Below, in pieces: positions 16,601 through 58,507 of a DNA stretch of 64,000 nucleotides. This stretch comes from an uncultured Saprospiraceae bacterium (lineage in GTDB: Bacteria; Bacteroidota; Bacteroidia; Chitinophagales; Saprospiraceae). The first letter of the stretch is position 1. Each line of letters starts with the position of its first letter. The DNA is taken from NCBI GenBank assembly GCA_938007965.1, contig CALLMH010000052.1, forward strand, positions 46,105 to 110,104, given 5' to 3'. The position numbers were made by a program, and so were the translations under genes. The notes under the pieces are model-generated. The model was not told the DNA's origin, did not search any database, and saw nothing but the letters and a program-made list of their open reading frames with translations.

Positions 16601-19600
16601 CAGTTATCTGTGAATGTAAATCTGTACACTTGGATTCCTGTGATTCCACAAGAGTCCTCTTCTGTGATAAGATCCCATTCTACATTCAATGATTCATCAG
16701 AACAAGCATCAGTAGCCGCAGAAGAAGCCATACTGTCTAGCCATGCTTGAAGATCACTATCATTACCATCTCCGTCACATTCTACTACCATATTCATCGC
16801 TTCTGGATCTATCGTCGGCGATGTCGTGTCTTCTATTATAAAGATTCCTATGATCGTATCAGACACATTTCCACAAGCATCAGTTGCTGTGAATGCATAT
16901 CTCATTTCATTGGTCAATCCGCATCCTTCTATTGTCGTCAGAAGTTCGGGTGTATTCCTTGTCGTAGTTCCGCATTCATCTTCCCAAGAAGCACCCGCAT
17001 CATCATCTAACCATGCTTGTAATTCAGCAAGATTTCCCGCTCCATCACACTCCACAGTCATATCAGAAGCTGGATTTGTTACACTTGGTTTTGTATTGTC
17101 TACTACTGTGACCATTGCTGTTCTCTCTGTGGAGTTTCCACAGGCATCGGTTGCCGTAAATGTTACAAGTGCTGATCCTGCATTACTACCAGCTCCACAT
17201 GAAGGTGTCAACATAGTGAAGTCATTGCTATAAGCTACTACGCTACAAGAATCGGCTGCTTCTCCAAATCCAACAGTTCCTAGCCACGTTTCTATTTGCA
17301 TCAATGGATCATCACTATCATTACATTCGAAGGTTACATCTTGAGGATTGATAGTCCAGTATGGAGCTACATCATCCGAAATGTTGATCGTAGCGGTAGT
17401 AGACGTAGCATTTCCACATCCATCAGTTGCTGTAAATGTCACAGTTATACTTCCAGTTCCTTGACATGCTCCAGGATTTACTTGACCGTAATCATTTGTC
17501 CATATGACTTCATTACAGTTGTCAGTGGCTGTCGCTCCACCATTATTATTCAACCAATTTAGAAGTTGAGTAATGTTGTTATCGCCATCACAGACTACAT
17601 CTATATCTATAGCTTGGTCTTGTATTATAGGAGCTTCTGTATCCTCTATTTCGAAAGTAGCTTCCGTGGTAGAAGTGTTTCCACAAGCATCAGTTACAGT
17701 AAATCTATAAGTTCCACCTCCAGTCAAGTCGCATAAGTCGCTTTCTTGTATCAAGTCATATTCCCAAGTTGTAGTGCCACAAATATCGGATGCTGTTGCA
17801 CCACCATTCGAATCTAACCATGTTTGAAGATCCATCGTGTTTCCAGTTCCATTACACTCTACGATATTATCTATCGCTTCAGTATCGATAGTCGGTGAGG
17901 TAGTGTCTATGATGATAAAGCTTGCTATAGCAGTGTCAGACTGATTACCACATGCATCCTGTGCACTGAATGCATATATTAATTCTTGAGTGTCGCCACA
18001 GTTTTCTATAGTCTCCAATAATAAAGGTGTATTCCATGTCGTATCGCTACATATATCTGCAACACTAGCTCCTCCATTCATTGCTAACCAAGCTGTAAGT
18101 TCTGTATTATTTCCAGTACCGTCGCATTCTACTGTTTCGTCTAACGCAGGTGATGTGATCATCGGTCCGGTATTATCCACTATCGTTACATCAGCAGAAG
18201 CATCCGTAGAATTTCCACAAGCGTCAGTTGCTGTGAATGTTACGGTTAGTGTTCCCGTGCTACCACATCCGTCAGACAACATTGTAAAGTCATTCGTGTA
18301 TACAACTAGAGAACAAGAATCTTCAGCTTCTCCACCGCCTACACCGTCCAACCATGCATCAATTTCGTTTAATGGATCAGAAGAACCATCGCATTCTAAA
18401 GTTAAGTCTTGTGGCAAAATTTCCCAAATAGGAGCGGCTGTATCATCTACTGTGAATGTTGCAGTAACCGTAGAAGCATTTCCACAATCGTCTGTAGCGA
18501 TGAATGTCACTTGGACACCATCTGCACCACAATCACTGTCGATAGCGCCATAGTTGTTCGTCCATGTTACATTACCACACATGTCCGATGCTTGTGCTCC
18601 ACCGTTGGTGTTTAGCCATCCCAAGATCTCAGCACTGTTATCGGCACCGTTGCATTCTGCTGTGAAGTCCGTAGGCTGAGTATCTATTGTAGGTGGTGTA
18701 GTGTCTTCTATTATGAAAGTAGCTTCTGCGGTTGATGAATTTCCACAATCATCAGCTACTGTAAATCTATATGTTTGACTTCCAGTAGTCCCACACGAAT
18801 CAGTGGCAGTCACTAAGTCATATTCCCAGGTGAAAGTCTGACTACAATTATCTGTTGCATCCGCTCCTGCATTATCATCTAACCAAGTTTGAAGTGCAAC
18901 TGTATTTCCAGCACCATCGCACTCTACGGTCATATCCATCGGTACAGGAGTAATAGTAGGATCTGTCGTATCTTCAATTGTAAATGTCGACATCGTCTGA
19001 GTGGATACATTGTCACATTCGTCTGTTGCGAAGAAAGCATAGGTATATATCAATGTTCCACCACATAATTCTTCTGTACCTATGAGTACACTATCAATAT
19101 TTATAGATGCACTACATCCGTCAGTATAGGTGATTCCTGCATAGTTAACCAACCAATTAGCAAGGTCTGTCGTATTTCCAGCACCATCACACTCTACAGT
19201 TTCAGCTGTGGGTTCAGTGACTAGACTAGGAGGTGTATTGTCTACTACAGTTATAGTTGCAGTGGCAGTAGTTGCATTGTTACATCCATCCGTAGCTGTA
19301 AACGTCACAAGAGCTGATCCGGTCAATCCACATCCATCAGATAGAGCAGTGAAATCATTTGAATAGGTTACTAGACTACATCCATCTTCAGCTTCTCCAC
19401 CAGCATTGATGGCCAACCAAGTATCGATTTGTCCCATGATATCAGTATCTGTACATTCGAGTGTTAAGTCTTGTGGTGCTATCTCCCATACTGGATTATC
19501 TGTATCATCTATAGTAAATGTAGCGATAGTCGTACTCGTATTTCCACAATTATCAGTAGCGGTAAACGTCACATCTACACCATCAGCACCACAATTAGAA

Positions 19601-22600
19601 TCAATAGTGGAGTAGTCATTCGTCCATACTACACCCGAGCATATATCAGATGCTTCGGCTCCACCATTTGAATTTAACCAGCCTAGAAGGTCAGCGCTAT
19701 TGCTTGAACCATTGCACTCAGCTGTGAATGCTATCGCTTGGGTAGTTATAGATGGTGGGGTAGTATCTTCTATTGTAAATGTTGCATTAGATGTTGAAGT
19801 GTTTCCACACCCATCACTTGCAGTAAATGTATAGGTCTTGGTACCGTTTGTACCACAGGAATCTGTAAAGTCAATTAATTCATATGACCAAATCACAGTT
19901 CCACAAATATCAGTTGCCGCTCCTATGTTTCCATTGGATGTCAACCATGCAGTAAGTTGTACATTATTTCCAGCTCCGTCGCATTCTACTGTTTCACTTT
20001 CTGGAGCGGTATCAATAGTCGGTGGAGTCGTATCTTCAATAGTAAAGGTTGCAAGAGATTCTGATGAATTACCGCATTCATCAGTCACTATAAATGCATA
20101 GGTCATACTATTTGTATTCTCACAGCCAGCAATATTTGATCTCATTTCATTTGAAAAAGTAAGGTCGGCAGTTGCAGAACATTCGTCAGTTGCCATAGAG
20201 CCAGCGTTGTTGCTCAACCAAGTTGCCAAGTCGGCACCATTATTTGGTCCACACTCTACTGTCATATCCATTGCTGGAATGGTAATGGTAGGCGGTGTGT
20301 TATCTTCTATAGTTACTATTGAAGTGGCAGTTGCTGTATTACCACAATCATCAGTTGCTGTAAATGTATAGGTTGTTACACCGGTATTAGCACACGCTCC
20401 TACAAATACTCCTGGATCATCGTTAGTCACTGTGACATCAGAACATAGGTCATTTGCAAAAGCAGAGGCCAGCCATTCAGTTATAGTGATGGCATTGTCT
20501 GGGTCGCTGCATTCTAGTGTGATAGGATTAGGAACTGATAGTATAGGGTCAGTCGTGTCTTCTATGACAAATAGTAAAGCAACTGGAGTTGAAGGATTTC
20601 CACACTCATCTGTAGCTACAAATTGAACTTCATAAAATCCAATATCGTCAGCACATGTTGTATTTTCAGTGAAACTCACGGAATCAAAATTATTACTCCA
20701 TGTGATTGATCCACAATCTTCCGTAACATCAGCATCAGTAAGACCTCCATTATTTTGTAACCAAGATAATAGTTGTGCATTATTTCCATTTCCGTCACAT
20801 TCCACAGTCATATCAGCTGGGACATTATTAATTACAGGGATGGTAGTATCTGTCAATTCGAAATCAGCAAAACATACCGAAGTATTGCCAGCATCATCAG
20901 TCGCGGTAAATTGATACGTGATTGTTTCAGTGTTTCCACATCCGCTTGTTGTATTGAATATTAAATTAGTGATGGTAATATCAGAATCACAATTATCCAC
21001 AGCTGAGATTCTTGCTAAGAAATCACTTAGATCCATCGCATTCATTATTGAAGAGCATTTAGCTATTGTATCAGAAGGACACGATATTATAGGTGATTCA
21101 CAATCTTCAACTAAGATATTAAACGAGCAAGAAGAACTGTTGCCTTGGTCATCACTTATTGTATACGTTACCGAACTTAATCCTAATTCAAATGTATATC
21201 CGCTTGCATCTCCATCCGTATCAGAAAGGTCAGCTGATGAAGTGACACTAGCATCAGGATTAGTAATCGAATAACTGATGGTAATTCCCGGGCAGTTTTC
21301 AGCGGATGTTATTGGAGTTATTGCTCCTGAGCTATTCCAATCACAAGTGTTCGTGTCATTACAGACTGTTATATTTTCAGGACATATTAATACAGGCGCA
21401 TCATTATCTTCTACGGTGATGGTCCACATACAAGAATCTATATTTCCACAGTTGTCTTGGGCGTAGAATTTTATTTCCGTATCTCCTAGAGGGAATTCTC
21501 CTCCGGATGCAATATTGGTAGCGGCTGGTGTAACAATAGCTCCATTGCAATCCGTTGCAAATGGGGTAGAGTAGATTATTTGAGTACCACATGCGCTTGC
21601 ATCCGTATTTACTGTAATGTCGGATTGGCAATTGAATAACGTCGGAGGTGTCGTATCATCAGTGTATATGATGTTGGACGTAGCGGTCTCCATATTTCCA
21701 CAATCATCTGTAACGGTAAATGTTATTAAGAATGTACCGCCACACGCATCAGGTAAGTCTCCATTATAGTCTGTTGTTACATTCGTAGATCCACATCCAT
21801 CTTCTGTAATAGATTCTCCCAGCCATTGATTGATTTGTGTGGCGATATCATCATCCCCACATGTAATCAAGAGATCAGCCGGTGCCATGATTGTAGGAGC
21901 AGTTTCATCAGCAATTGTATAAGTTGCAAATGCAGTATCAATATTTCCGCATTCATCAGTTGCTGTAAATAAGTACGTAGTAGCAGTTGTATTTCCACAT
22001 CCTGATATGGTATTCCATAGTTCGTTGGTTACAGTAGGTGTACTACAAATATCTGTGGCAGACGCTGTTGCGATCCATGCTGCAACAGTTGTTGCTGCCG
22101 CATCCTCACATTGTACAGTTATATCTGTAGGTTCTGTCAGTTCTGGTGGTGTAAGGTCTGTTATAATTACGCTCGCTGTTACTGATTCTCTATTCATACA
22201 TTCATCTTCTACAACAAATGTGTAGATTGTAGTAGTTGTATTTCCGCATTCGTCTATTGGTGTACCAGCGGAAAATGACCAAGTTAATGGTTCACTACAA
22301 CCATCAGTTGCTTCCGCTCCACCATTCATTCCTGTCCAAGCATTAATTGCTGCGGCATAATCGCCATCCATTACACATTCTAGGATAAGATCTTCTGCTG
22401 GAATTGTGATCGTTGGAGCTGTTTCGTCTACGATGGTCACTGTAGATGTAGTCGTCGCAGTCCGTCCGCATTCATCTGTGGAGGTGAAAGTTACAGTGTA
22501 TACTCCTGTCATTCCACACGCGTCAGCTATTGTTCCAAGACCACTATTTGTAATTGTAGGAGTACCACAATTGTCTGTTCCTGATGCTTGTGCCAACCAG

Positions 22601-25600
22601 CTGGAGATTATTTCTTCATTTAATTCTCCTCCACATTCTAAGGTTATTGCTGGAGGTGCTGTAATTGTAGGGTCAGTAGTATCTTCAATTGTAAATGCTG
22701 CTGAAGTTGTCGACGAAAGGCCACACTCATCAGTAGCTGTAAATACAACAGTAACTGTTCCTGAAGCTCCACAAAGATTTGATAAACCTGTAAAATTATT
22801 GGACCATGTGATATTTCCACAAAGATCAGAAGCTACTGCTCCTCCATTATTACTAAGCCATGTTAGTAGTTGAGAATTATTACCTTCTCCATCGCACTCG
22901 ACGGTCATAGGTGCGGCTGGAGTATCAATCATCGGTACAGTCGTATCTTCTATGATCACTTCAGCGGTACATACAGCTGTGTTACCAGCTGCATCAATCG
23001 CTGTAAAGGTATAAGTTCTAGTTTCAGTATTGCCACACATGTTTTCTATGAAAGATACTTCGTTTACAATCGTAGGATCTGGACAATTATCTGCAAACAT
23101 AGCTGTTGAAATCCAAGCGGCTATTGCAGCATCATTTCCTGTATCTGTGCATTCTAGTGTTAGATCTCCAGCTGGAGGACAAGTAACTGTTGGTTCTTCA
23201 CAATCTTCTACGATTACATTGAAAGTACAAGTCGTAGTGTTACCCATAGTGTCTACTAGTGTATAAGTGACCAATGATGTTCCGAGCATAAATTCTATAG
23301 CATCCAGCCTTGGTAGACTATCTCCCATGGCGGTAGTTGCACCAGTGATCGAGTAAGAGAGATCGAAGCCTCCACAATTATCTGCAAAGATGGCATCTGT
23401 ACTCATATTCGCTGTCCAGTAACATTGTCCCGTATCGTTACATTTTATAACGTCATTTGATGGACATGACAGACTTGGTTCTTGGGTATCTACTACCGTA
23501 ATGTCAAAACTATCTCGTGCAGTATTTCCACAAGCATCTTCGGCTTCAAAAACTACCGTTGTCGTTCCTACTGGGAATTCAGCACCGGAGGTTAGTAGAT
23601 CTCCGTCCGCATTTGCAACTTGAGTTACTATTACGGCTTCATTACAATCAGCTCCTACTGGCGTAGAGAATACGACATTGCTTTCACAATTATCAACATC
23701 TACATTGATCGTTAGATCTTGACTTATATTTGTAAATGTTGGTGGGGTCATGTCATTTTCTACGATAATCATAGCGGAGGTTGTACTCATAGCCATGCAT
23801 TCATCTATTACTGTCCAGGTTACGGTGAGGTTTCCACCACAGAGATTAGGGACTGATCCATTGTAGTCATTTGTTATTGTGGTTTCTTGGCACCCTTCTG
23901 TTACAGTTACATCATTTAACCAAGGGATGATTGCAGCAGCTATATTATCACCACAAGCGACGATAAGATTTCCAGTATTGTGGATTATGGTAGGGGCTGT
24001 ATTATCTTCAATTATGAATACTGCAGTGTTTATAGAATCGTTTCCACATTCATCAGTTGCAGTGAAGGTGTATGTTTCAGTAATTGTTGTTACTGTTCCA
24101 GTACAAGTAGTACTGATAGTTGGTGTATTATATGTGATAGAGACATCACCACCACAGTCATCAATTCCAGATGCTGATTCCAACCATGTGGTTCGTATTG
24201 TTTCTACGGATCCATCGCATTCTACAGTATTGGTCGCCGTCGGCAATGTTAAGTTTGGTGCGGTTTCATCTATAACAATATAGTTTGCAAATGTCGTTAT
24301 TGTATTTCCACAATCATCAGAAGCTACAAATGTATATTGGGTTGTACTCGTCATACCGCATTGATCAGTAGGTGTGCCGGCTGTAAATGTCAATAGAACG
24401 TCAGCGTCGCAATTGTCTGCGGCACTCCCGTTTCCAAAAGCGGCTTCCCAAGTGGATAGCAATGCAGCTCTATCGGGAGCTGTACACTCTACGATCAAGT
24501 CAGTAGGAGGTATCATTATTACAGGACTCTGATTATCCACCAATGTTATGGTAGAACTGGCTGTAGCAGTTAGTGTGCCACAAGCATCAGTTACTGTCCA
24601 TGTTACTGATACTTCATCATTACCTGTCGTACAATCTGTAGGAAGAGCATCATAGTCATTTGTTACTGTTTCTAGACCACAGATGTCAGTTGTAGTATAT
24701 CCATTTAGCCAGTTTTGTACTATAGCTTCATTGTTCTGATTACCACATTCTATTATTATGGCTTCAGGTGCAATTATGGTAGGATTGGTAGTGTCTTCTA
24801 TGGTAAAGGTAGCAGTTGTATTAGCGGTTAGTCCGCATTCATCGGTTGCTGTGAATATCACAGTTGCGGAACCTGTATCTCCGCAGGCGTCAGATAGGGT
24901 GGTGAAGTTATTTGACCAAGTCACAGTACCGCAAAGATCACTTGCAGCGGCTCCACCATTTGAGTTAAGCCATGATATTAGTTCTGAATTATTTCCTTGT
25001 CCATCACACTCGACTGTCATTGGCATAGCCATAATATCTATAGTAGGATCAGATGTGTCTTGAATTATTACTTGTGCAGTACAAGTTGCTGTATTTCCTG
25101 CCGCATCGGTAGCAGTAAATAAATAGGTAGTAGTAGAAGTCATTCCACACATGTGATCTACATTAGAAATCATATTTGTAATTGTAGGATCAGGACAATT
25201 ATCATCAAAAGTCGCAGTAGCTAACCAAGCTGATATTGCTGCGGTATTACCCATATCACTACATTCTAAGATAAGATCCCCAGATGGAGGACAGGTCACT
25301 GTCGGTGCTTCGCAATCATTTACTACCACATCGAATGAGCATGTTACTTCATTCCCAGCAGGATCAATTAATGTATAGGTGACAGTTGATGTTCCTAATT
25401 CAAACATAACACCATCTAATCTTGGTAAACTATCTCCCATTGCAGTAGTGGCACCAGAAATTTCATATGACAAATCAAAACCTGTACAATTGTCTGCGAA
25501 AATAGCGTCAGTACTCATATCTGCTGTCCAGATACAAGTTCCACTAGCATTGCATTTCTCTACATCATTACTAGGGCAGCTTAATGATGGCAATTGAGAA

Positions 25601-28600
25601 TCGACCACTGTAATATCAAATGAATCTCTTGCTGTATTTCCACAAGCGTCCTCGGCTTCGAAAACAACTGTGGTAGTCCCCAATGGAAATTCTGCTCCAG
25701 AGGAAAGTAGGTCTCCATCAGTATTTGCCACTTGGGTGATAGTGATAGGCTCATTACAATCTGCCCCAACTGGAGTAGAAAATACGACTGAACTTTCGCA
25801 GTTATCTACATCGACATTCACCGTCAGGTCATTAGAAATAGAAGCAAATGTAGGTGGAGTGTTATCGTCGGCTACTATGATCATTGCAGTAGCAGAACTC
25901 ATGGCTCCACATCCGTCTATAACATTCCATGTAACTGTTTCCATACCTCCGCATAATGAAGGAATAGAACCCATATAATTATTGGTCACTGTATAGTCTT
26001 GGCATGCCTCGGTTACAGAGTAGTCCTCTAACCATGCCGTAATCATCGTACCTATGTCATCACCACAAGCTACTTCTAGATTTGCTGGTGCAGTGATGGT
26101 AGGAGCTTCAGTGTCAGTAATAGTATATGTGGAAGTTCCTGTCGATTGATTTCCACATGCATCTGTGACCGTGAACAAGTACGTATATGTCAATTGTGTA
26201 TTTGTACCCATACATGTTTCGTCTATTGTGACCAAGGCATGGGTGATTAATGGGTTATCATCACAATTATCAGTTGCTGATGCCATTGCCAACCATGGAT
26301 TGATTAATGTGCTTTCTGCACTACTGCAATCATTAGAATTTCCTGCAGGGGGTATTATAAGAGACGGATCAGTATTGTCTTCTGATATAAGATATGCAAT
26401 TTCCGAGATTGAATTTCCACATGCATCAGTTGCAGTGAAAGTGTAAGGTATGGTTTGATTGTTTCCACATCCAGAAAGTGCTGGACCTGTAGAAAAACTT
26501 AAAACTGGGTCATCACAGTTATCAACAGCGGTCATGCCACCAAAACTAGCTGTCCAAGCATCGATAAGTCCTTGTGCTGATGGACACTCAAGAATAAGAT
26601 CAACTGGAGGTGTCATTATGATTGGTTTCTCATTGTCAATTATCGTTATGGTCGAAGTCGCAGTAGAAGTTAATATCTCACAAGCATCTGTTACTGTCCA
26701 AGTGACTATAACTTCATTCATACCAGCTTCACACATAGTAGGTGCAGTGGTGTAATCATTGGTTACGGTTACATCTCCACATGCATCCTCAGCAGTATAA
26801 CCATCAAGCCAGTTGTTGATAATTGCTTCATTGTCTGTGCTTCCACACAATAGAGTGATGGCTGATGGAGCGATTATAGTTGGTACAGTATTATCTTCTA
26901 TGGTAAAGGTACCCATCGTAGTTGCAGTATTTCCACATTCATCTGTCGCTGTAAATGTTACAGTTGCAGATCCTGTAGATCCGCAGTCATTGCTAAGACC
27001 ACTGTAATTATTGGACCATAAGACAGAACCACATTCTTCTGTAGATACAGAACTACCACCGTTGCTATCTAACCATCCCAAAAGTGCTTCATTATTGCCT
27101 TCACCGTCGCATTCTACAGTTGGGCTTGTAGCGTTTGAGATTATTGGATCTGTTGTATCTTCGATGGTAATAGTTGCCGAACAAGTACTAGTATTTCCAG
27201 CGTCATCTGTTGCTGTGAATATATATGTTGTAACTGATGTCATACCACATTGAGTGTCTATACTGAAAATATCAGAACTAATGGATGCTGACATATCACA
27301 GTTGTCAGTGGCCGATGCAGCAGTTTCAAAAGCTATTATAGCGGCCTCATTACCAGGGTCACCACATTCTAAAGATATATCAGCAGGACAAGTAATGATA
27401 GGTGCTTGACAATCCTCTACCGTGAGGATAAAAGTACATGTCGCCATATTACCAGAGGCGTCTGTAGTGGTGTAAGTTATGGTAGATGCCCCTAGGCCAA
27501 AGACTACACCGTCTCCACTTACAGTATTGAATCCGGTAGCTGCTGACATCATCGGTGTAGCATCTCCTGTAATAGTGTAAGTCAAAGTAGCACCTGTACA
27601 ATTTTCATTAAAGAAAGGATCTAGGGCAGATGTCGCCGAAAAAGAGCAAGCACCTTCATCCGTACATACTGTCAGATCACTTGGGCAAGATAGTGTAGGC
27701 GTGTCATTATCTTCTACTATGATATTGAATGTGCAAGTAGATGTGTTTCCACAATTATCGGTGGCAGTGAATGATATGACGGATGTCCCGAGTGGGAATA
27801 GATCACCTGATGAAATATTTGCAGCATTGGGAGTTACAGTTACGGGCTCGTTACAATCCGTTGCTACTGGAATAGGGTAGTTTACTCTTGCTTGGCAGTC
27901 GGCAGTATTTACATTCACAATGATATCCTGAGTAGGACAATTAAGGAATAAAGGGGCTTCCGAATCTGCTTGGATAATAATATTGGCTGTTGCCGTACCC
28001 ATCGCACCGCAATCATCAATTACAGTCCATGTTACTGGTGTTGTAGATCCACAAAGATCTACTGCTGAAGCGTCAAAACTATTTGATACATCAGTAATCT
28101 GACATGCTTCGATTACTGAATAATTATCTAGCCAATCTAATACATTGAGACTGATGTCATCTCCACACTCTAAAGAAAGATCTGACGGAGGAGTGATCAT
28201 CGGAGCTTCGGTATCGGTAATCGAGAAAGTAGATGTACCAATAGATTGATTTCCACAAGCATCAGAAGCTGTAAATACATAGGTGTATGTTATTTCAGTA
28301 TCGGTTCCTGCACATTCGGAGTTTTGAGAGATTAGTGCAGCGGTTATATTAGGAGCATTGTCACAATCATCAGTTGCGGATGCAGATGCTAACCAAGGGT
28401 TGATTAATGTCAAAGGATCAGCGGCACAATCAGTAGACATTCCAGGGGTAGGTAGAGTCAATATTGGATCAGTCGTATCCGTGGTTATTAGGTAAGCAAT
28501 TTCAGAAATTGAATTTCCACAATCGTCAGTTGCCGTAAAAGTATATGGAGTTACTTCATTGCTCCCACAAGTGCCCGTAGGAGTTCCTACTGTGAATGAT

Positions 28601-31600
28601 AGTGTAACATCATCATCGCACTGATCAATAGCTGTCATGCCACCGAATGCATCAGTCCAAGTCAGGATGTCTGCCATTGTTGCAGGACATTCAAGGATGA
28701 GGTCTGCCGGTGGAGTCATGATGATCGGTTTATCATTATCTACTATTGTGATGGTAGATGATGCCATTGCTGTCTGACCACAATCATCTGTAGCTGTAAA
28801 TGTGACAGTCAGCATATTCATACCAGATTCACAACCAGGAAGATTTGCTGTAGTGTAATCATTGGAGATATTTATATTGTCCGAACAGATGTCATCTGCA
28901 TGAGCCAAAGATAACCACTGAATAATGCTTAGATCATTAGATTCTTCATTGCAAGACAGCGTTATATCAGATGGTGGAGTGATTGTTGGAACTGTGGTGT
29001 CAACAATTGTAAATCTTACCGTTATTGGATTTGAAATGTTATCGCATTGATCTTTAGCGGTATATTCTACATCATAATATCCAGTTGAAGGACATGAAGC
29101 ATCTGGTACGAAGTTTCCTACATTATAGTTATTTATAAAATCAGAAGCTGGTCCACATTGTTCTGTTACATCACTTGGTAAAATTCCGGAATTATTTGCT
29201 AACCAGGTAGAAAGGTCTGCGCCATTTCCATTTCCATCACATTCGAAAGTAACATCTGGAGCATTATCCGCTAGAATCGGAGCTATATTATCCTCGACTA
29301 CAACATTTGCAAAACAGATAGAAGAGTTTCCTGCATCATCAGCTGCTGTAAACTGATACTGCCTTGTATATGTCTGACCACATTCTGCGATTTCAAATAA
29401 TACCATACTGGTAAAGTCTAGATCTATATCACAATTGTCTGTCCCTGAGATAGAAGCTAACCAAGCCATAATTTCTGCCTCTTCATCATCCTCTTGACAC
29501 TCCAAGACTAAATGTTCTGGACATTCTATGATTGGATCTTCACAATCTTCTACTATAACGGTAAACATACAAGAAGCCATATTTCCATTTCCATCATCTA
29601 CTGTATACTCTATAGTGTTCATACCAACTTCTAATATCTCACCAGCTGCGCTTCCCATACCCGAAGATATGCCTGACGGGGTAGTTACTTCATAAGTCGT
29701 AGAAGTAGAACAACCATCAGTAAATAATGGGTTGACAGCAGAAGTTGCTGCCCAAGTACATTCTCCATCATCATTACAAATTACGATGTCGTTTGGACAA
29801 GTAATATTGGGTGCTGTATCGTCGACAACAGTAATATTGAATGTACAAGAGACGGTATTATTACATGCGTCAGATGCTAAAAATGTAACTCCCGTTGTTC
29901 CTATCGGAAATTCTGATCCAGAAGAAGGACCAGCTGATTGGACAATAGTCACTGGGATATTACAATCATCAGAAGTAGGTGTTGGGAAGAAAACCGTTGC
30001 CGTCGAGCATGCTGTTCCGTCGACATTGACAGACATATCAGCTGGACAATTGTCGAAAGTTGGAAGCGTTGTTTCTGGTTCTACTACGATTTCTCCAGTA
30101 GTAATTGTGCTGTTTCCGCATTCATCAGTTGCTGTGAAAGTTACGGTAATATTGTCACCGCATAAATCAGGTGCCGTACCATCGTAGTCATTGGTAAGCG
30201 TGATTGGTCCACCACATCCATCTTCCGCAGTCGGTACGTTTAGAAAAGTATTGATTAGTCCTGTGATGTTATCGCCACAAGCTACAGTTATGTCTTCTGG
30301 TAGTACTGTAAAGGAAGGTCCAGTATTATCTGTTGTGGTATATGTTCCTGGTGATGAGATGCTATTTCCGCATTCATCAGTAGCGGTGAATGAAAATGTA
30401 TAGGTAGAATTTCCAGCGCATCCATCCTCTACTACACTTACGAGGGTATTGGTAACTGTTACATTAGAGCAAGCGTCATTTGCTGTAGCTGCCATTGCTC
30501 CAGCCCAGAGGAAAGGGTTGGCTCCTTGACATGCGATTGGTCCAGGGTCAGCTGCAACTACGAGAACTGGAGGAGTGTTATCTTGGATGATTACATTCGC
30601 TACTTCGTTGACAGAGTTATTGCCACACTCATCCGTGACTGTAAACGTGTAAGGGGTTATTGTTGATCCTGGACATAGGGTTGTAGTTGTTCCAGCCATA
30701 GCTGTGACAACAGGATTCGGGTCACATAGGTCTTCAAAAATTCCATTACCATTGATGGCAAGCCAATTGGCGATGGCGCCTCCTGGATCAGCTGTTCCAT
30801 CACATTCAAGTACTAGATCAGTAGGTGCTAGAGTTACGATAGGAGCTCGCGTGTCCTCAATAGAAATTAATGAAGTAGCTGTCATCATATTATTACAGTC
30901 ATCAATAGCGGTAAAAGTTACTGTCAAAATATCTCCGCAATCGGGTAGAGCTGTAAAATCATTAGTAATGGTTACATCTCCATCACAGCCGTCAATACTA
31001 AATGCTGATGTTAAAAAATTCTGCAATATGGCATCATTGTTATCAGCGTTACATTCTAACGTTATACTAGCAGGGACAACTAGGGAAGGATTTGTGTTGT
31101 CTCTAATTTGCAATTCCCTTGTAACGGGTGCTGACTCATTTCCACACTGATCTACAGCGGTAAAGACCGCTGTGTATGTTTCTTGTATATTATCGATACA
31201 CATTGGATCTTCTACAGATACGCCTGTGAATGAGAATTCGAACTCAAATGTTCCGCACATTTCACTTACATCAGCATTGGTCAGGCCTCCATTAGAGTTT
31301 AGCCAAGCTTGTATATCAGCTGAATTACCATTTCCATCACAATCGACTATGGTCGGGTCAGTATTTGCAGGGGTAATGATAGGTGGTTCACTGTCCTCTA
31401 TGGTGATGGTAGCATAGTCTATTGATGTATTATTACATTCATCAGTTACTGTGTATTGGTAAGTTATTACTGATGTATTCCCGCAAGTATTGATATTTGA
31501 TAATTCGGACAAATTACTTGAGGCAATATTACAATTGTCCATAGCAGAGAACATAGCTTCAAAAGCCATAATATCTGCGGAATTTCCAGTGCCATCACAT

Positions 31601-34395
31601 TCAACTGTCAGATTAGCTGGTACATTTAGGACTGGGGCTGTTTCATCTGTACTTACGGATATAGTCAACACATTTTCGCAACCGTTCATAGAGAATCTAG
31701 TGTAAGTAATATCGGTAACCCCGCAAGACGTAGGAGTGAAAACACCTCCCGTGCCATCACCATTATCTACGACATTAGTACCTGAAAATACTCCTCCATT
31801 TTCTACAGGAGTCAGTGTAATTGCTTCATTTAGACAAGGTTCATTATTTGATAATGAAAAAGAGGGATCTAAATTATCACCTGATTCTACAGATATACTT
31901 TGTGTGACTGAATTGGTACAGCTTCCCGCTGGTATATCTCCACAGGCGCTGTAATCTACAGTTTCTGTAAGAGTAACCATGAATGTACCGACACCAGAAA
32001 AGGTAACTGTTCCAGTAACAGGATCAATAGTTCCAGGCCCACTAGCTGACCAAACTCTGTCTACAGGAGCTGAGTAAGTCGGGGAAGTAAGTATCGGAGT
32101 AGCAGTAGGTGCTGGGCCTGCTGCAGAATAACAGACAGGATTTTGAATATTAAATGAAGGTTGCGGGTCTTCACTTATTATTACGCAAGAAGTGATTGGG
32201 CCTACAGCTGGGCAAGTACCATTATCAAGATTATAATCTACACAAAAACATCCAGGACCATCATAAATTAAAGCTCCGCCTTGAATATTTGATGGATTTG
32301 CACCATTGCTGGTGAAATTCTCAGGGGTCATATCTGCGCCTGCGAAAAGTGTAGTCAGTGGAACGAGGCCTGTGGTGCTAGTAGTACATGTAAAATCTAT
32401 AGTAGTAGCAGTTGGTGTAAATGGCTCTTCAACGACAGATATAGAGTAGGGGATTCGATTAGAAGGACAACCATTACAAACACATTCAGCAAAGAATGTA
32501 TATAAGCCAGGAGACATATTATCAAATACGCCTTGTTGAGCTACAGAACTACCCGAAGTCGGATTAAAGCTAGCACCTGTCGAAATAGAAGTTCCTCCCG
32601 TGGCATTGCTGAACCATTCTACAGTAGGAGCCGATGCATCTGCACAGGCACTACAAACTGCAATTAAGGATATAGCATTTCCTTCACATATATCTACAGT
32701 GGTATTTCCGTTCGTGGGATCAGAAGCTGGTGAAAAAGAGGTGATCGTTATCGGAGTACCAACGGCGTCACAAGTAGAACAACCACTAGAATTAACAAAT
32801 GTAGGAGTAAAAGTAACAGATGTACCTTCCAATACTTCAAGCATTGTCGATCCATCTGGGATCAATACACCTGGCATATCATTTCTAGTCCAAAATTTAG
32901 AGTAAGACCCTGCCATGTCATTGAATGCTACTCCAGATGCACTACCATCAGAGGGATTACATTTTTCTACTTGATAGGATAGTTCTGGTATGAAGTCTCC
33001 ACATGATGTTGTTTCGGTTGCCATTACATTTGTGATAACTGGAGTTACAATTGTCACTTGTTTTGTGGTAGTGGTCGAACATTGGGTACAATTTGAATTT
33101 GCAATTTCATAAGTAATGTCATACACTCCGCAAGTGGCACATTGGTCTACTGTCACGCTTCCGCTTCCTTCATTACAAAAGTCTTGGGTGATTGCCGGTG
33201 TACATATTTGACCTGACCAATTAAATGACATCCCTGGTGGCGGATCAATTGGCGAGAGCGTTGTGGAATTTCCTGCGTTTAGTCCATTTGGCTGCCACTG
33301 TGGGTTACTTAGATTGCTAGGAAGTATAAGTTCTTGACCACAAAGCATATCACAGTTTATCTCAATAGGATCTGCGAAATTAGAGGTAGGGTAGAATACT
33401 TCTACATTAAATTCAACATTTACTTGAACATCGGTTTCAGCGTTACAATCAGCGTCTTTAAATTCAAATGCAGCGAGACCTGTAGAGCATGTATTTCCCA
33501 AGGCCATAGCATTACTCAGGATTTCAAATCTACCGTCAACATTGAGTCCACTACCCATGGCAGTATTTACATTTCCTGATGAAGGGTCGAAACCTGAAAT
33601 TGTGGATGTATTGTCTATTTGAAAAGTGTTGCCAGCAAAACCTACCCCACATGTATTGTCAGAATCATAAGTAACGACGAGCTCAGAACCACATCTTACT
33701 TGGACTGTTGTAAGTTCAGTATTGATAATATTGCCATCTGCTTCGGTATAATTTATAGTTTGATCTAGGCCGCCAAAACAATCTTCAACATCAAAACTTG
33801 CTTCTATTTGAAATTTTCTATCCCCAGGAACGACAAGGCTATTAATCAGATAAGCCCAGTTGCCATCAAAGCTGGGTGCGTCCCCGAGCGGATCAGCTGG
33901 TGCGCCGTCCCAGATATTAGCGGGATCATTCGGACCTACTGCAGGAAACTTAATTAATTCTCCTAATGGCGATGCGGCTCCTGCCCTGTCTTCGTTGCTT
34001 CCACATGGCGGACCACCTTCATTACCTCTTCTTCGTGTATACAGGACAGCGTTGTATGTTTTACCTGGGCACAATAGAATTCCAGTAGCTAAGGTGCCAG
34101 GGTTCCATTGCAATTCGAGTCCTGATCTGGTATCAGTACATCCGAAAAATTCTGCAGTAAATCCATCAGATGGAGAACAACCCTCTTCGACTACGTAGAG
34201 TTCATAGGAAAACCAATTGGATGTCCAGCCATTCCTACGATAGAATTCATACTCTATTTTGAATGTGCCAGGATTGTCGGGATCTTCTAAAACGACTAAA
34301 TTTCTAGCCCCCCATATGTGATCTGCCGATACAGTGTTAGGCAGTAGTAAAAAGGCGATTACTGGGAGTATTAGTAATTTGATGAATTTTTTCAT
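10423..34395 (-). CDS. Giant 7990-aa HYR-repeat surface protein, T9SS-sorted
   Basis: Signal peptide MKKFIKLLILPVIAFLLLPNTVSA, then ~900 residues of cysteine-rich N-terminal region. HYR and HYR-like Ig-fold domains follow from about residue 920 to 6200, each ~70-95 aa with the pattern D.T.P.I..P.D.T.EC...DNC...CG....T..ATD.CGN. They form two higher-order blocks: about 1450-4255 repeats an eight-domain unit every 699-704 aa, and about 4970-6040 repeats a four-domain unit every 354-356 aa. A lamin-tail-like domain (LLITEIMNDGNNVGIEISN, ~6205-6350) and a P-domain-like module (~6410-6530) follow, then diverse HYR domains, a dockerin-like segment (STLDLVMVQRHILGL...GDVNNDERLTASDLLSM, ~7645-7700), and a T9SS type A sorting domain (LDQNEPNPF...KMIVVE). 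The repeats are rich in Asp, Thr and Cys and nearly free of Lys/Arg. A rigid, Ca2+-dependent surface filament or adhesin is inferred; the ligand is unknown. Confidence 0.9.
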   Translation of the reverse strand: MKKFIKLLILPVIAFLLLPNTVSADHIWGARNLVVLEDPDNPGTFKIEYEFYRRNGWTSNWFSYELYVVEEGCSPSDGFTAEFFGCTDTRSGLELQWNPGTLATGILLCPGKTYNAVLYTRRRGNEGGPPCGSNEDRAGAASPLGELIKFPAVGPNDPANIWDGAPADPLGDAPSFDGNWAYLINSLVVPGDRKFQIEASFDVEDCFGGLDQTINYTEADGNIINTELTTVQVRCGSELVVTYDSDNTCGVGFAGNTFQIDNTSTISGFDPSSGNVNTAMGSGLNVDGRFEILSNAMALGNTCSTGLAAFEFKDADCNAETDVQVNVEFNVEVFYPTSNFADPIEINCDMLCGQELILPSNLSNPQWQPNGLNAGNSTTLSPIDPPPGMSFNWSGQICTPAITQDFCNEGSGSVTVDQCATCGVYDITYEIANSNCTQCSTTTTKQVTIVTPVITNVMATETTSCGDFIPELSYQVEKCNPSDGSASGVAFNDMAGSYSKFWTRNDMPGVLIPDGSTMLEVLEGTSVTFTPTFVNSSGCSTCDAVGTPITITSFSPASDPTNGNTTVDICEGNAISLIAVCSACADASAPTVEWFSNATGGTSISTGASFNPTSGSSVAQQGVFDNMSPGLYTFFAECVCNGCPSNRIPYSISVVEEPFTPTATTIDFTCTTSTTGLVPLTTLFAGADMTPENFTSNGANPSNIQGGALIYDGPGCFCVDYNLDNGTCPAVGPITSCVIISEDPQPSFNIQNPVCYSAAGPAPTATPILTSPTYSAPVDRVWSASGPGTIDPVTGTVTFSGVGTFMVTLTETVDYSACGDIPAGSCTNSVTQSISVESGDNLDPSFSLSNNEPCLNEAITLTPVENGGVFSGTNVVDNGDGTGGVFTPTSCGVTDITYTRFSMNGCENVLTISVSTDETAPVLNVPANLTVECDGTGNSADIMAFEAMFSAMDNCNIASSNLSELSNINTCGNTSVITYQYTVTDECNNTSIDYATITIEDSEPPIITPANTDPTIVDCDGNGNSADIQAWLNSNGGLTNADVSEMCGTFEFEFSFTGVSVEDPMCIDNIQETYTAVFTAVDQCGNESAPVTRELQIRDNTNPSLVVPASITLECNADNNDAILQNFLTSAFSIDGCDGDVTITNDFTALPDCGDILTVTFTAIDDCNNMMTATSLISIEDTRAPIVTLAPTDLVLECDGTADPGGAIANWLAINGNGIFEDLCDPNPVVTAMAGTTTTLCPGSTITPYTFTVTDECGNNSVNEVANVIIQDNTPPVLVVAADPGPIACQGANPFLWAGAMAATANDACSNVTVTNTLVSVVEDGCAGNSTYTFSFTATDECGNSISSPGTYTTTDNTGPSFTVLPEDITVACGDNITGLINTFLNVPTAEDGCGGPITLTNDYDGTAPDLCGDNITVTFTATDECGNSTITTGEIVVEPETTLPTFDNCPADMSVNVDGTACSTATVFFPTPTSDDCNIPVTIVQSAGPSSGSEFPIGTTGVTFLASDACNNTVSCTFNITVVDDTAPNITCPNDIVICNDDGECTWAATSAVNPLFTDGCSTSTTYEVTTPSGISSGMGSAAGEILEVGMNTIEYTVDDGNGNMASCMFTVIVEDCEDPIIECPEHLVLECQEDDEEAEIMAWLASISGTDNCDIDLDFTSMVLFEIAECGQTYTRQYQFTAADDAGNSSICFANVVVEDNIAPILADNAPDVTFECDGNGNGADLSTWLANNSGILPSDVTEQCGPASDFINNYNVGNFVPDASCPSTGYYDVEYTAKDQCDNISNPITVRFTIVDTTVPTITPPSDITLSCNEESNDLSIIQWLSLAHADDICSDNINISNDYTTANLPGCESGMNMLTVTFTATDDCGQTAMASSTITIVDNDKPIIMTPPADLILECPATMADILTWTDAFGGMTAIDQCDDDVTLSFTVGTPTGTCGSNEVTPYTFTATDDCGNSISEIAYLITTDTTDPILTLPTPGMSTDCAADPLTLINPWLASASATDDCDNAPNITAALISQNSECAGTDTEITYTYVFTASDACGNQSIGTSTFSITDTEAPMITPPSDLSLECGDDISLNVLDWLDNYSVIEACQITDVSNSFDASAVDLCGSTTPVTWTVIDDCGAMGTATANIIIQADSEAPLFLNCPTQDIIVNVNTADCQARVNYPIPVATDCNEPVTVTPNAANISSGDLFPLGTSVISFTATDNCGNTSTCTFNIIVEDNDTPTLSCPSDLTVCTDEGACSFSATSALDPFFNENCTGATLTYTITGDATPMMSAATGFNTVSGDGVVFGLGASTITYTTTDASGNMATCTFILTVEDCQAPIITCPADISLECGDPGNEAAIIAFETAASATDNCDMSASISSDIFSIDTQCGMTSVTTYIFTATDDAGNTSTCSATITIEDTTDPIISNATSPTVECDGEGNNEALLGWLDSNGGSSVSTEECGSVLWSNNYSGLSNDCGSTGSATVTFTATDECGNTATTMGTFTIEDNTVPTIIAPSAITLLCGSTDNEAIINNWLDGYTAEDACGDVTVTNDYTTAPTMCEAGMNEVIVTWTVTDACEILTSTATSTITIIDNEKPIIMTPPVDLILECPSAQGLIDAWTASFGGMTAVDNCDDPVLSFSTGPALSGCGNNQTIPYTFTATDACGNSISEIAYLISEDNTDPSLIIPPAGNSNDCSSAESTLINPWLAMASATDNCDDNPLITHALVTIDETCMGTNTQLTYTYLFTVTDACGNQSTGTSTYTITDTEAPTITAPANLEVACGDDIGTMITAWLEDYSVTEACQDYTVTNNYMGSIPSLCGGMETVTWNVIDGCGAMSSATAMIIVADDNTPPTFASISNDLTVNVDVDNCESSVVFSTPVGADCNEPITITQVANTDGDLLSSGAEFPLGTTTVVFEAEDACGNTARDSFDITVVDSQLPSLSCPSNDVEKCNASGTCIWTADMSTDAIFADNCTGFDLSYEISGATTAMGDSLPRLDGVMFELGTSTVTYTLIDPAGNEVTCSFDVVVNDCEAPTVTCPPSGDLILECSDMGNTAAISAWLATATFDDNCPDPTITNMISNVDHMCGMTSTTTYLFTATDAAGNTATCTAQVIIQDTSDPTIDIMAMPMTVECDGQGNNSELISWLNSNGGAAASDLCGTVTWSNNFTTLSDACGDTGSATVIFTATDECGLTANTTATFTIEDTTNPTIIAPEAIIIECGNQNNEAIVQNWLNGYTTTDICGLETVTNDYDALPTDCTTGNDEVSVTWTVTDACGTLTATASSTITLVDNQSPVIMIPPTDLIVECTAPDRAALLSTWEAAFGNGSAADNCDADVLLTFTAGTPTDQCGMTSTTQYTFVASDDCGNTITTFANYIVIDETAPNLTLPTATNTVECDGSVETIRTTWLESASGIDDCGGDVSITYNTPTISTTCTGTVTTITETYTFTATDECGNDSINTAVFIIEDNTAPTIIHNTGNLIVACGDNIAAAIIPWLNDVTVTEGCQETTITNDYNGSVPNLCGGNLTVTWTVIDECMAMSTTSAMIIVENDMTPPTFTNISQDLTINVDVDNCESNVVFSTPVGADCNEAVIVTQVANADGDLLTSGAEFPVGTTTVVFEAEDACGNTARDSFDITVVDTQEPSLSCPSNDVIKCNDTGQCYWTANMSTDAIFADNCGGFDLSYSITGATTAMGDSLPRLDAIEFMLGTSLVTYTLVDTMGNTTTCTFNVIVEDCEEPTVTCPPAGDLTLECTDTGNDAAIAAWISTAMFADNCPDPTIVNEVSFIENMCGNTETRTYTFTAIDAAGNTAVCTAEVIIEDTTVPMIDTPAAPMTVECDGEGNNSQLLTWLSNNGGAVASDLCGNITWSNNFTGLSNLCGASGTVTVVFTATDECGLSSTTSAAFTIEDTTDPTITAPPAITLECGGELNEEIISSWLAQASGTDNCGTPTITNSGLGTIADACGMTGVYTVTFTSTDECGRTATTTSTVTIVDETAPTITIPAEDLILECVMDGDYAAAINAWTGMNGGAEATDGCSEPLTWSFSAGTPIDECGNTTTTIYTFVVEDECMNRESVTASVIITDLTPPELTEPTDITVQCEDAAATTVAAWIATASATDICSTPTVTNELWNTISGCGNTTATTYLFTATDECGNIDTAFATYTIADETAPTIMAPADLLITCGDDDIATQINQWLGESITEDGCGSTNVTTDYNGDLPDACGGTFLITFTVTDDCGNMETATSNIIYTDDTTPPTLFNCQSDITVNTDASACGTQIIYSTPFATDCNGAIVTPAATNIASGGEFPLGDTEIKFYAQDNCGNIDSCMWTITVEDNDAPVLICPENITVCNDTNTCDWNSSGAITPITSAENCPGITISYSITNPDASVTSSADLSDTDGDASGYTFELGLSSVTYTISDDQGNSSSCSFNILVEDCESPIISCPSDTIAKCSSIMNAMDLSDFLARISAVDNCDSDITITNLIFNTTSGCGNTETITYQFTATDDAGNTSVCFADFELTDTTIPVINNVPADMTVECDGNGNNAQLLSWLQNNGGLTDADVTEDCGSITWSNNFDSVSFTENTTCADDIGFYEVQFVATDECGNPSTPVALLFVIEDTTDPILSVPNPITLECSDPDNAITITEWLASAFANDLCSDVTVTNDDPGVFVGACANTGVTTYTFTATDDCGNTATATSIVTIEDNTPPTITIPAMDMTVECGPNNGADLATWLSNNAGSMATDECSATADLTFSNEMRSNIAGCENTNSMTYAFIVTDECGNSSESLATFTIEDTTPPTIDTAPESETVECDGAGNNVQLTAWLTSNGNIGAATDICGTVIWSYELIDFTDSCGTNGTKTYTFTASDGCGNTSTSNATFTIEDTTPPSITTQAIAFTAECNGSSNSADLLGWLNSNGGAEASDICSGVVWTNDYSTIDSNCGADGVDVTFTATDNCGNTSTTIATFTIDDTDNPVWEIAPQDLTLECTDTDIMGQIDTWLAINAGGEAEDGCSLVTYSNDFTALSDGCGLTGSALVTFTATDGCNNATTATATITVVDNTPPSLVTEPTAETVECDGAGNTTDLANWLVNYAGITYTDGCSASINIDSVLIGTEELCGGTLIYTYAFFATDECDNVSTQTMSTFTIEDTTDPTITPVPMDMTVECDGAGNTVALQTWLDDNAGADATDNCSQTFTWEYDLVTATDSCGTTGSQTYRFTVADDCGNSSTAEATFIIEDTTPPTIDTQPTDFTAECNGADNSAEILGWLNTNGGAQASDMCGNVTWTNNYGAIDSDCGADGVQVTFIATDDCGNASTVTATFTVDDTAAPIWEILPQDLTLECDGSSDPLNEIDAWLDGVGGGEAEDSCSLVVYTNDFTMLSDGCGSTGTLTVTFTATDACGNSTDASADVTIVDNTGPMITSPALDETVECDGTGNNTELTAWLAMNGGASVADICSDTTWNTPLLLETIENCGDTQELIYAFSAQDACGNQSDTAIASFIIIDTTSPTIDTEAIDNIVECNGTGNTMDLQTWLDSNGGATASDICGTTTWEYDLIQESDLCDLTGGGTYRFTVTDACGNTSTTEATFEIEDTEAPIIQDQAIDIDVVCDGDNNITQLLNWLNNNGGATATDNCNEVIWTNDYGQVNPGACQGTGSITVTFTATDGCGNATSTTATINISDDVAPYWTINPQDVTFECNDSDDPLMQIETWLGTVGFGEAADSCSVVAYSNDFTMLTPSCGAGSNAGSALVTFTATDACGNSTERTAMVTVVDNTKPSVTNPASDMTVECDGAGNLAELQAWLDDDAGASWEDECGTTTRNTPELLTTIEGCGLTNEMRYAFTATDACGNVSDTIIGIFIIEDTTSPTIDPEAMNMVVECDGDGNDSDLQAWLDSMASSAATDACSDESLNVEWDLITEEDSCGITGIQVYRFTFTDNCGNATSTEGTFTIEDTTPPVIVGGENYSGECDQSNANNDDELLSWLNNRGGATASDMCGTLVWSNDYNVDNFMDGCNDSRNIDVTFTATDECGNASSITLNFSTGDNTPPVFTNCPRPPVIVDAPEGWCNSFVNFSLPLATDNCGIPFVEQTDDTGLSTGDLFPVGLTLLEFTATDSCGNSTTCELKIIVNDFHTPPSIECPVDQTVNNDPAMCGATVDGIEPFDIEDNCPDNLAVVYTITDEDGNIIEGGVEDASGFKFPTGTNTVTYEVIDQPILLITEIMNDGNNVGIEISNFGPGSIDISCLDIAREGIQDTIFNVPNGTVVGVGEVYTVFLDGIDPNQGAGYTIGLLDNILDGVAINAYAPTGWTFDGDIAGSNIFRNRFPDTDSSDDWSIGNSCAGLSFGEFNPELPMFTDNGSTSSLQSEPANTSSCSFTIIVQDNEAPYCAGLETSDYPSTDTPITFTDGGCATSIINVSDVFNVSDVNIIDLEGEYPNMSEVTITLTSPEGTVVTLFDGLCAGSEDWDINLDDQAANSQASITCAPLGNGESFQPLQAMDIFNGEAAFGDWQLDVFATGNDDGTLTTWTLQLSELAPYSQTDTVLVNDTLLCGATFEWQHPFIGDNCEAGDISVEYVFLNDNAVILNTPINIEAGASASEFFAVGTTQVIYTLTDGAGNTSQCGFDVTVIDTEDPDLSGIFDATGLCQDITIQLDAGECSMGLPGYGAGFPLAPIGSNDNCGIDSVSYDPPVGFQFPIGVTPVTITVYDAAGNSTSCTFNVTVNEFDNDGNNTLACNNNINLSLGPDCTATVNADMILEGDQYGCYDNYCIVATTESGIVVDNIFDLTDVGQTFIITITDCEGSGNSCWGYVTIEQKLIPEIECAPDTIISCNMATNPEFTGYPTVLSCEQDVQMTYFDDYEDFGPCGEPRARITREWTVTDESGNVVNCTQTIDIEQFDTEDIEFPADYTIATGLDCALVANDPSQIHPDSTGYPTINGLDVPLSTNGLCMVSWNWDDQILFSCEGSYEILRKWFIRDMCEEVQIGINPIEHYQIIKILDTEGPTIHDCPNDVTISTDPWSCTGTYELADIISTIDDNCGGVDQVQVSVNGGTVVDNMDGTFTITNMEKGDHLVRVRARDYCYNYSTCEFNINVFDGTAPVVTCTQFINVSLTTEGKAKMFVESVDAGSYDNCTEIRRELFRMDDNCGIPENTLPGQFVEFCCADVEASPIMVALQVWDDANMDGVIGNEGDNVSLCMVEVTVEDKLPPAITCPADLTLECNADVEDLAVTGEPTIEGACSNNTATYQDFRTDLNNCGAAIINRRWTVDGRPDVFCTQVITLETGEPFNGNIQWPADWEGACLDNIPQNEPIFVDGACDQVAYSVATDTFDFVEDVCYKLIKEWTVIDWCQYEPNNPNTGGIWMHTQIVKISDDTAPEIQQCADITIDLNAENCMQDVVVTNTAMDSVCGINSPIKWAYQLDLDADGNWDIELDYNDNTPNDILVGDEASIMIKDATPGNYKIAWKAFDGCGNVGSCQYDIVIRDGKAPTPYCIDVATALMQDVGTISIWANDFNLSSFDNCTAQSDLLYSFSGDVYEPSMEFSCNDIPNGISETIELEMWVWDEAGNKDFCIVQLDLQDNLDQCQDTLNNLAIISGRVATEEEEPVNGVDITLTSFAPEYPYTNTSNEEGEFYFLYNPTGYDFEATAERNTDYREGVSTLDLVMVQRHILGLQDLDSPYKIIAGDVNNDERLTASDLLSMRKLILGVTNTWENKSWRFVNQVYEFPNAEDPFPYEEEVQVLDLMESIDDADMIAVKIGDVNGSASSSFNNAKAGIAPRSNPIQKVILEKVDIDGKIYIEFRAAENGKLYGFQFGAENTGFDIKGLERGLIDVSADIIAKSNHKVRMSWSDKHGVHVFKDQVLFRMLVESANELATLSIDENDLVPAEIYMNTLEIKNLEFEWRNDASTNSETAFRLDQNEPNPFIDVTEIGFFMPEAGEATFSVFDIDGKLILRQTSMYEAGENVINVSSRDIGVKGMVVYEVSGDGFSGSRKMIVVE
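11300..11460 (-). other. Dockerin-like segment of the giant protein
   Basis: Encodes STLDLVMVQRHILGLQDLDSPYKIIAGDVNNDERLTASDLLSMRKLILG: two helices, with one clear Ca2+-loop-like DVNNDERLTASD. It lies downstream of a CarboxypepD-like beta domain (ISGRVATEEEEPVNGVDITL) and upstream of the sorting domain. Confidence 0.7.
14810..15160 (-). other. Proprotein-convertase P-domain-like module in the giant protein
   Basis: Residues about 6412-6528 include MSEVTITLTSPEGTVVTLFDGLC and MDIFNGEAAFGDWQLDVFATGNDDGTLTTWTLQLSE, the strand order and G.W.L.V......G.L..W.L motif of P/Homo B domains, which normally accompany subtilisin-like proteases or act as stand-alone adhesive modules. Confidence 0.7.
15335..15785 (-). 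other. Lamin-tail-like domain inserted in a HYR domain
   Basis: Residues about 6205-6352 start LLITEIMNDGNNVGIEISNFGPGSIDISCLDI and continue through VYTVFLDGIDPNQG and FRNRFPDTDSSDDWSIGN, typical of bacterial LTD domains. The host HYR domain is interrupted: NTVTYEVIDQ precedes the insertion and SSCSFTIIVQDNEAP follows it. Confidence 0.7.
16280..20560 (-). repeat. Higher-order repeat block 2 (four-domain unit, ~355 aa)
   Basis: Landmark Trp codons in VWEIAPQDLTLEC (19486), IWEILPQDLTLEC (18424) and YWTINPQDVTFEC (17356) are 1062 and 1068 bp apart. The flanking domain order (ECDGAGN..., ...TWEYDL, ...ECNG..N, PQDLTLEC) is the same each time. Confidence 0.85.
21628..30050 (-). repeat. Higher-order repeat block 1 (eight-domain unit, ~700 aa)
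   Basis: The unit-opening HYR motif (PTFDNCPAD, PLFLNCPTQD, PTFASISND, PTFTNISQD, PTLFNCQSD) falls at 30046, 27937, 25837, 23725 and 21628. The spacings are 2109, 2100, 2112 and 2097 bp (703, 700, 704, 699 codons). Each unit comprises two HYR domains plus six HYR-like domains in fixed order. A partial unit of six domains precedes the first. Confidence 0.9.
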
Positions 34396-58350: not shown

Positions 58351-58507
58351 GATTGACTTTATTGAATAATTATCTTCTCTATGACCTTTTACGACTATTT
58401 TGAATATTTAGATGACTTCATTGATATTTAGTATTGATTTGCTGATATATTACATCTTGAAACTTTCTATTTTGAAAATATATAAATATAAACATCAAAA
58501 ATTATAC

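What the first reader, a model, noticed from the sequence alone, without database searches (positions are those of the whole stretch)
21628..30050. Giant surface protein with a ~700-residue, eight-domain higher-order repeat
The opening motif of the unit (PTF.NCP.D-like) recurs at 30046, 27937, 25837, 23725 and 21628, spaced 703, 700, 704 and 699 codons. Each unit keeps the same eight-domain order, and a six-domain partial unit precedes the first. Such a near-constant long period on top of ~90-aa Ig-like domains suggests growth by duplication of whole eight-domain blocks, and selection for a fixed geometric length.
Basis: partly seen in the sequence, partly recalled or inferred. Interest (0 to 1): 0.85.

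Follow-up and report, generated by a model that had tools for sequence, protein, structure and literature searches.

The report
Giant bacterial protein with eight-domain super-repeats
A bacterium of the family Saprospiraceae carries a giant (about 843 kDa) secreted surface protein in which a block of eight different immunoglobulin-like domains is repeated in fixed order; at least 16 genera of the family share this block and copy it as a whole, much as muscle titin is built, but nothing shows that the block length itself is selected.

Summary
ORF 10423-34395(-), 7990 aa, holds 60 contiguous HYR-type Ig-like domains. Domains 1-43 follow an eight-domain super-repeat: lag-8 identity 0.49 against about 0.29 at other lags. 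It runs as partial unit (positions 3-8), four full units (698-705 aa), then positions 1-5. Domains group by position on a tree (9 label changes; minimum 7; shuffled 103). The same ordered unit occurs in a second giant of this genome and in 32 of 398 sampled family genomes (16 of 112 genera). In 16 independently fetched genes, position i is followed by i+1 in 492 of 635 steps (shuffled 0.13). Recent copies sit almost only at multiples of eight domains: 148 of 159 exact DNA repeats of at least 25 bp. Growth by whole-block duplication is therefore well supported. Selection for fixed length is not: unit-length variance equals the sum of the domain variances, and 4-, 12- and 16-domain derivatives occur. 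Most likely this is a T9SS-exported stalk whose array changes length by in-register recombination. It is titin-like in organisation, with no detectable sequence relation to titin, SprB or the Aureispira grappling hook. Ligand and function remain inferred.

The parts
10423..34395 (-). Giant secreted protein gene, 7990 aa, 843 kDa, pI 4.05
31648..34395 (-). Signal peptide and unique N-terminal region (aa 1-916); aa about 24-557 shared with other giant ORFs that carry different arrays
   Evidence: signal peptide by inspection only
30076..31647 (-). Leading partial unit, domains of positions 3-8 (aa 917-1440)
27967..30075 (-). Eight-domain unit U1 (aa 1441-2143)
25870..27966 (-). Eight-domain unit U2 (aa 2144-2842)
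23755..25869 (-). Eight-domain unit U3 (aa 2843-3547); AF2 model mean pLDDT 84.6
21661..23754 (-). Eight-domain unit U4 (aa 3548-4245)
20305..21660 (-). Start of fifth unit, positions 1-5 (aa 4246-4697)
16288..20304 (-).
15751..16287 (-). Closing position-1/position-2 HYR pair (aa 6037-6215); the position-1 domain is 64-87% identical to its counterpart in other species
14830..15132 (-). Proprotein-convertase P-domain (aa 6422-6522)
11308..11451 (-). Dockerin type I-like domain (aa 7649-7696)
10432..10659 (-). T9SS type A C-terminal sorting domain (TIGR04183, aa 7913-7988)
   Evidence: 29.8 bits against cut-off 23

Best explanation
The protein is a type IX-exported cell-surface stalk. Its C-terminal sorting domain takes it to the outer surface, and a chain of 60 disulfide-rich Ig/cadherin-like HYR domains carries a unique N-terminal module away from the cell (roughly 200 nm at about 4 nm per domain). 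The chain grew by homologous recombination between copies of an ordered block of eight domains. The eight positions are only about 29% identical to one another, so enough DNA identity for recombination exists almost only between the same positions of different blocks. Gains and losses therefore come in whole blocks and the order 1-2-3-4-5-6-7-8 is copied on: a self-reinforcing register lock, as in satellite higher-order repeats. Shown: the eight-domain order, its wide conservation, the block-sized recent copies, the in-register DNA matches, the T9SS tail and T9SS genes. Inferred: the recombination pathway, the stalk geometry, and the adhesive or prey-contact role.
For: Lag-8 identity and permutation test. 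Tree by position: 9 changes against 103 shuffled. Order in 16 independent genes; lag 8 best in 13 of 16 without position models, and 16 in one more. Recent duplicates of 80% or more DNA identity in the HOR genes at multiples of about 700 aa; G035 units D4/D5 96% DNA identity, dS 0.18, dN 0.008. Exact repeats of at least 25 bp: 148 of 159 at multiples of eight, against 5 of 69 in a single-domain-repeat control. TIGR04183 tail, PorU and GldM in the genome. Ig-like model; PDB sequence hits to the serine-rich adhesin for platelets SraP.
Against: The window's own array has no recent copies (no exact repeat of 25 bp, no self-match of 80%), so it looks frozen, and its history is read from relatives. 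G203 (12-domain) and the four-domain zone show that the lock can break. Some near-identical units lie at contig ends of draft assemblies and could be misassembled. No binding or surface data exist; the N-terminal fold was not resolved (pLDDT 38).
Confidence: 0.75

Rival explanations
1. Position-specific function, titin-like: each of the eight positions binds a partner, so that the super-repeat is a ruler with a fixed pitch and the order is kept by selection on function rather than by copying.
For: Positional identity is kept across at least 16 genera. Position-specific Cys numbers and helix insertion: positions 1-2 lack the helix present in positions 3-8. Purifying selection between recent copies, dN 0.008 and dS 0.18. 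Titin super-repeats show the principle (PMC10665226).
Against: No length compensation. 4-, 12- and 16-domain variants exist. Conservation is nearly equal at all positions, 0.41-0.48, with no outstanding binding position. No periodic partner is known.
Confidence: 0.15
2. Chance or artefact: an ordinary HYR array whose Ig periodicity only mimics a 700-aa period, or an assembly error.
For: HYR arrays are common in the family, and several related genes end at contig edges.
Against: Permutation tests, cross-genus order, complete ORFs of 5.8-9.2 kaa in many genomes, and single-repeat controls without lag 8.
Confidence: 0.02
3. The protein is a grappling-hook (GhpA) or SprB homologue used in predation or gliding, and the super-repeat belongs to that machine.
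For: Same family as Aureispira (GhpA; family placement from own knowledge), a T9SS tail, and Foldseek best hit 9fly GhpA; GldM present.
Against: No sequence match of any part searched to GhpA chains in the PDB. Foldseek TM about 0.2, with cadherins scoring alike. Type A tail, and no SprF/PorP-like gene among the neighbours that were scanned.
Confidence: 0.08

Closest known systems
Titin A-band super-repeats (7-domain D-zone, 11-domain C-zone)
   Same: Ig-fold domains in an ordered higher-order repeat; equal positions more alike than neighbours; two zones of different repeat length; recursive block duplication (PMC10665226)
   Different: Bacterial HYR domains, no sequence relation found; 8- and 4-domain units; no known lattice partner; unit length not constrained
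Nebulin seven-domain super-repeat and block duplication of domain repeats
   Same: Duplication of several domains at a time, often in the middle of the array (PMC1553488)
   Different: Prokaryotic gene without exons; recent copies confined to in-register positions
HYR-domain giant proteins of Bacteroidota with T9SS sorting domain
   Same: PF02494 and HYR_4C domains, type A sorting tail
   Different: Controls of the same kind have single-domain (79-84 aa) or four-domain repeats
Aureispira GhpA grappling hook
   Same: Giant multi-Ig protein, exported by T9SS
   Different: No detectable sequence homology; heptamer not testable
Mobiluncus mulieris giant adhesin (51 Ig-like domains, about 7650 residues)
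   Same: Largest protein of its proteome, growth by domain duplication presumed (PMC10619420)
   Different: Ester, isopeptide and thioester cross-links, LPxTG cell-wall anchor; no ordered super-repeat in the passages read

Membership tests
T9SS type A substrate | C-terminal sorting domain over curated cut-off | tested here: met
   TIGR04183 29.8 bits against 23; Pfam PF18962 below its cut-off
T9SS type A substrate | T9SS present in the genome | tested here: met
   PorU 1212.9 bits, GldM 263 bits
T9SS type A substrate | N-terminal signal peptide | tested here: inconclusive
   MKKFIKLLILPVIAFLLLPNTVSA by inspection; no predictor available
HYR (PF02494) | HYR profile over cut-off | tested here: met
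   240.7 bits, 10 stretches in the N-terminal 4665 aa
Higher-order (super-) repeat protein | Equal positions more alike than neighbours; tree groups by position | tested here: met
Titin-type molecular ruler | Unit length held constant to match a partner lattice | tested here: not met
   No compensation of lengths; partner lattice not testable
GhpA grappling hook | Sequence homology to GhpA chains | tested here: not met
GhpA grappling hook | Heptameric assembly | not testable with these tools
SprB gliding adhesin | Type B tail and adjacent SprF/PorP-like gene | tested here: not met
   Tail matches type A; no such gene among the neighbours scanned

The most novel reading that the evidence does not exclude
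A bacterial, extracellular counterpart of titin: eight position-specific Ig domains per unit, each binding a defined partner, kept in order by selection across a bacterial family and giving a surface fibre whose reach changes in steps of about 30 nm.
Probability: 0.12. Interest if true: 0.85.

Novelty: new variant of a known kind. Interest (0 to 1): 0.62.

Why it matters
Protein super-repeats are known mainly from muscle proteins, where function and copying history are hard to separate. Here one ordered eight-domain word is found in at least 16 genera, in frozen and still-duplicating arrays, with 4-, 12- and 16-domain derivatives and single-repeat relatives as controls. That makes an old question testable: is a higher-order repeat kept by selection, or by a recombination lock that arises once positions have diverged? 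It also gives a rule for how giant surface fibres change length.

Tried and rejected
Fixed-length selection: tested twice, not supported. Membership in GhpA: the Foldseek hit was followed up by sequence and not confirmed. N-terminal module structure: pLDDT 38, unusable. Origin of the eight-mer from a duplicated four-mer: positions i and i+4 are no more alike than others (0.29, 0.24, 0.35 and 0.31 against 0.23-0.36 for all pairs), so not supported. Literature searches found no bacterial precedent, but only open-licence papers are held. An earlier count said 14 of 16 genes have best lag 8; the recount gives 13 of 16.

Full report
OBSERVATION. The gene is 10423-34395 on the minus strand, 7990 aa, calculated 843 kDa and pI 4.05. 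Self-BLAST of the protein shows diagonals at 699-704, 1403, 2105 and 2806 aa. DNA self-matches at the same lag reach 65-69% identity over up to 1.2 kb. I split aa 917-6215 into 60 contiguous domains of 82-101 aa and recovered the same boundaries with a profile. Mean identity by domain lag over d01-d44 is 0.494 at lag 8, 0.426 at 16, 0.408 at 24 and 0.401 at 32, and 0.275-0.305 at every other lag up to 32. The best value in 2000 shuffles of domain order was 0.37. Cysteines per domain repeat the pattern 5(3),5,6,4,4,4,4,4, which does not depend on alignment.

After position 5 of the fifth unit the array changes to a four-domain super-repeat, d44-d58: lag 4 identity is 0.562 over d45-d58 (largest of 5000 shuffles 0.537) and 0.544 over d43-d58. 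It then closes with a single position-1/position-2 pair, followed in many relatives too by a C-terminal region with its next HYR-like domain about 310 aa on. The C-terminal part includes a P-domain, a dockerin-like domain and a T9SS type A sorting domain.

TREE TEST. 147 domains from six proteins were put on one tree: this one; a second giant of the same genome on contig 23 (open frame 6550 aa, open at a contig end); CALFDU010000115, an uncultured Saprospiraceae bacterium; G035; G022; G001. The position label needs 9 changes where 7 is the minimum and shuffled labels need 103 on average (minimum 96). The unit label needs 137, more than shuffled (122). Mean identity is 0.43 for the same position, 0.29 for different positions and 0.30 for neighbours.

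ACROSS THE FAMILY. The organism belongs to Saprospiraceae, judged from the named relatives. A unit query at E <= 1e-60 finds 32 of 398 sampled family genomes, 16 of 112 genera. I took 17 long ORFs from these and classed their domains with position profiles trained on the six proteins above. G223C115 was then dropped as the same contig as CALFDU. In the other 16, position i is followed by i+1 in 492 of 635 contiguous steps (0.775); shuffled 0.13, maximum 0.17. Without position profiles, domain lag 8 is best in 13 of the 16; G395C5 has 16 with 8 close behind, G203 has 12, and the longest run of G189 favours lag 1. Among the 13, the short run of G135 only equals its shuffle maximum. Related giants with the same domain family but single-domain repeats show no lag-8 peak, and G058 of another family has a four-domain repeat. 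The two giants of this genome match domain by domain over 22 consecutive domains (A28-A49 with B15-B36, mostly 66-84%), but have different N-terminal regions. The N-terminal module of the window protein is in turn shared with giants whose arrays are simple. Arrays and ends therefore shuffle independently.

MECHANISM. In the HOR genes, DNA self-matches of 80% or more lie at multiples of about 700 aa (G111, G227, G395C5, G176C9, G270, G135, G035); G189 again differs, with short lags. Two G035 units are 96% identical in DNA with dS 0.18 and dN 0.008, so whole units have been copied recently and kept under purifying selection. Exact repeats of 25 bp or more inside the arrays number 159 in these genes, of which 148 lie at multiples of eight domains (148 of 155 without G189); in the single-repeat control G036 only 5 of 69 do. 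The inference is that once the eight positions had diverged, homologous recombination could work only in register, so blocks are gained and lost whole and the order persists. The window's array itself has no such repeat, and its units have near-saturated synonymous sites (dS 2.9 and above): it is an old, frozen array. Similarity is highest between U3 and U4 and falls towards the ends, as expected for duplication in the middle of an array, a pattern reported for domain repeats generally (PMC1553488).

FIXED LENGTH. If unit length were selected, changes in one domain should be offset in others. Over 36 units from other genes the SD of unit length is 6.66 aa against 6.70 for independent domains (permutation fraction 0.51; range 689-715). 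Over 15 hand-segmented units it is 7.43 against 7.14 (0.63), and for the four window units alone the variance is lower than expected but not significantly (0.12). The claim is not supported.

STRUCTURE AND FUNCTION. An AlphaFold2 model of U3 with 17 aligned units has mean pLDDT 84.6 and pTM 0.34: eight beta-sandwich domains, positions 3-8 with an extra helix, and uncertain inter-domain angles. Foldseek finds GhpA fragments of Aureispira, cadherins, S-layer proteins and RTX extenders at TM about 0.2, which says multi-Ig rod and little more. By sequence the unit profile hits the serine-rich adhesin for platelets (E 1.8e-7), and no part searched hits GhpA. The genome has T9SS genes. The best reading is a T9SS-exported stalk or adhesin; the ligand, and a role in attachment, aggregation or prey contact, are inference. 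The N-terminal module could not be modelled.

KNOWN OR NEW. The organisation is that of titin and nebulin super-repeats. I found no description of an ordered Ig-domain super-repeat conserved across bacterial genera in the open-licence library; subscription papers were not searchable. I class it as a new variant of a known kind.

Noticed in passing
L009 3-19652 (contig 23 of the same genome): Second giant (open frame 6550 aa, open at a contig end) with the same eight- and four-domain arrays but an SdrD_B/DUF11 N-terminal region; its position-1/2 domains B26/B27 match A23/A24 better than their collinear partners A39/A40, suggesting replacement of single domains.
   Followed up: partly
L075-L076 (G203) and L059-L060 (G395C5): Derived super-repeats of 12 and 16 domains built from the eight-domain word.
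   Followed up: partly
L039-L040 (G058): Giant of another family of the order with a four-domain super-repeat of 340 aa, probably independent.
   Followed up: partly
L094, L095, L096: N-terminal module of the window protein (aa about 24-557) at 46-47% identity on giants; in L094 and L095 the arrays are simple 79-84-aa repeats.
   Followed up: partly
window 21661-25869 compared with 27967-30075: Position-1 domains of U3 and U4 lost two cysteines together (NCP and the C-terminal TC/SC), pointing to a disulfide lost as a pair.
   Followed up: no
window 1-897 (-), continuing into L014: End of another large T9SS-type protein with repeats of the form 'GNGGFDYDWGGG...GIYNVTATDINGC'.
   Followed up: no
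window 58412-60985: Kelch-repeat protein with a weak T9SS tail match, below cut-off.
   Followed up: no
G022 contigs 134/129 and G035 contigs 6/31: Apparent N- and C-terminal halves of one giant gene each, split at contig ends inside the array: draft assemblies break at these repeats.
   Followed up: no
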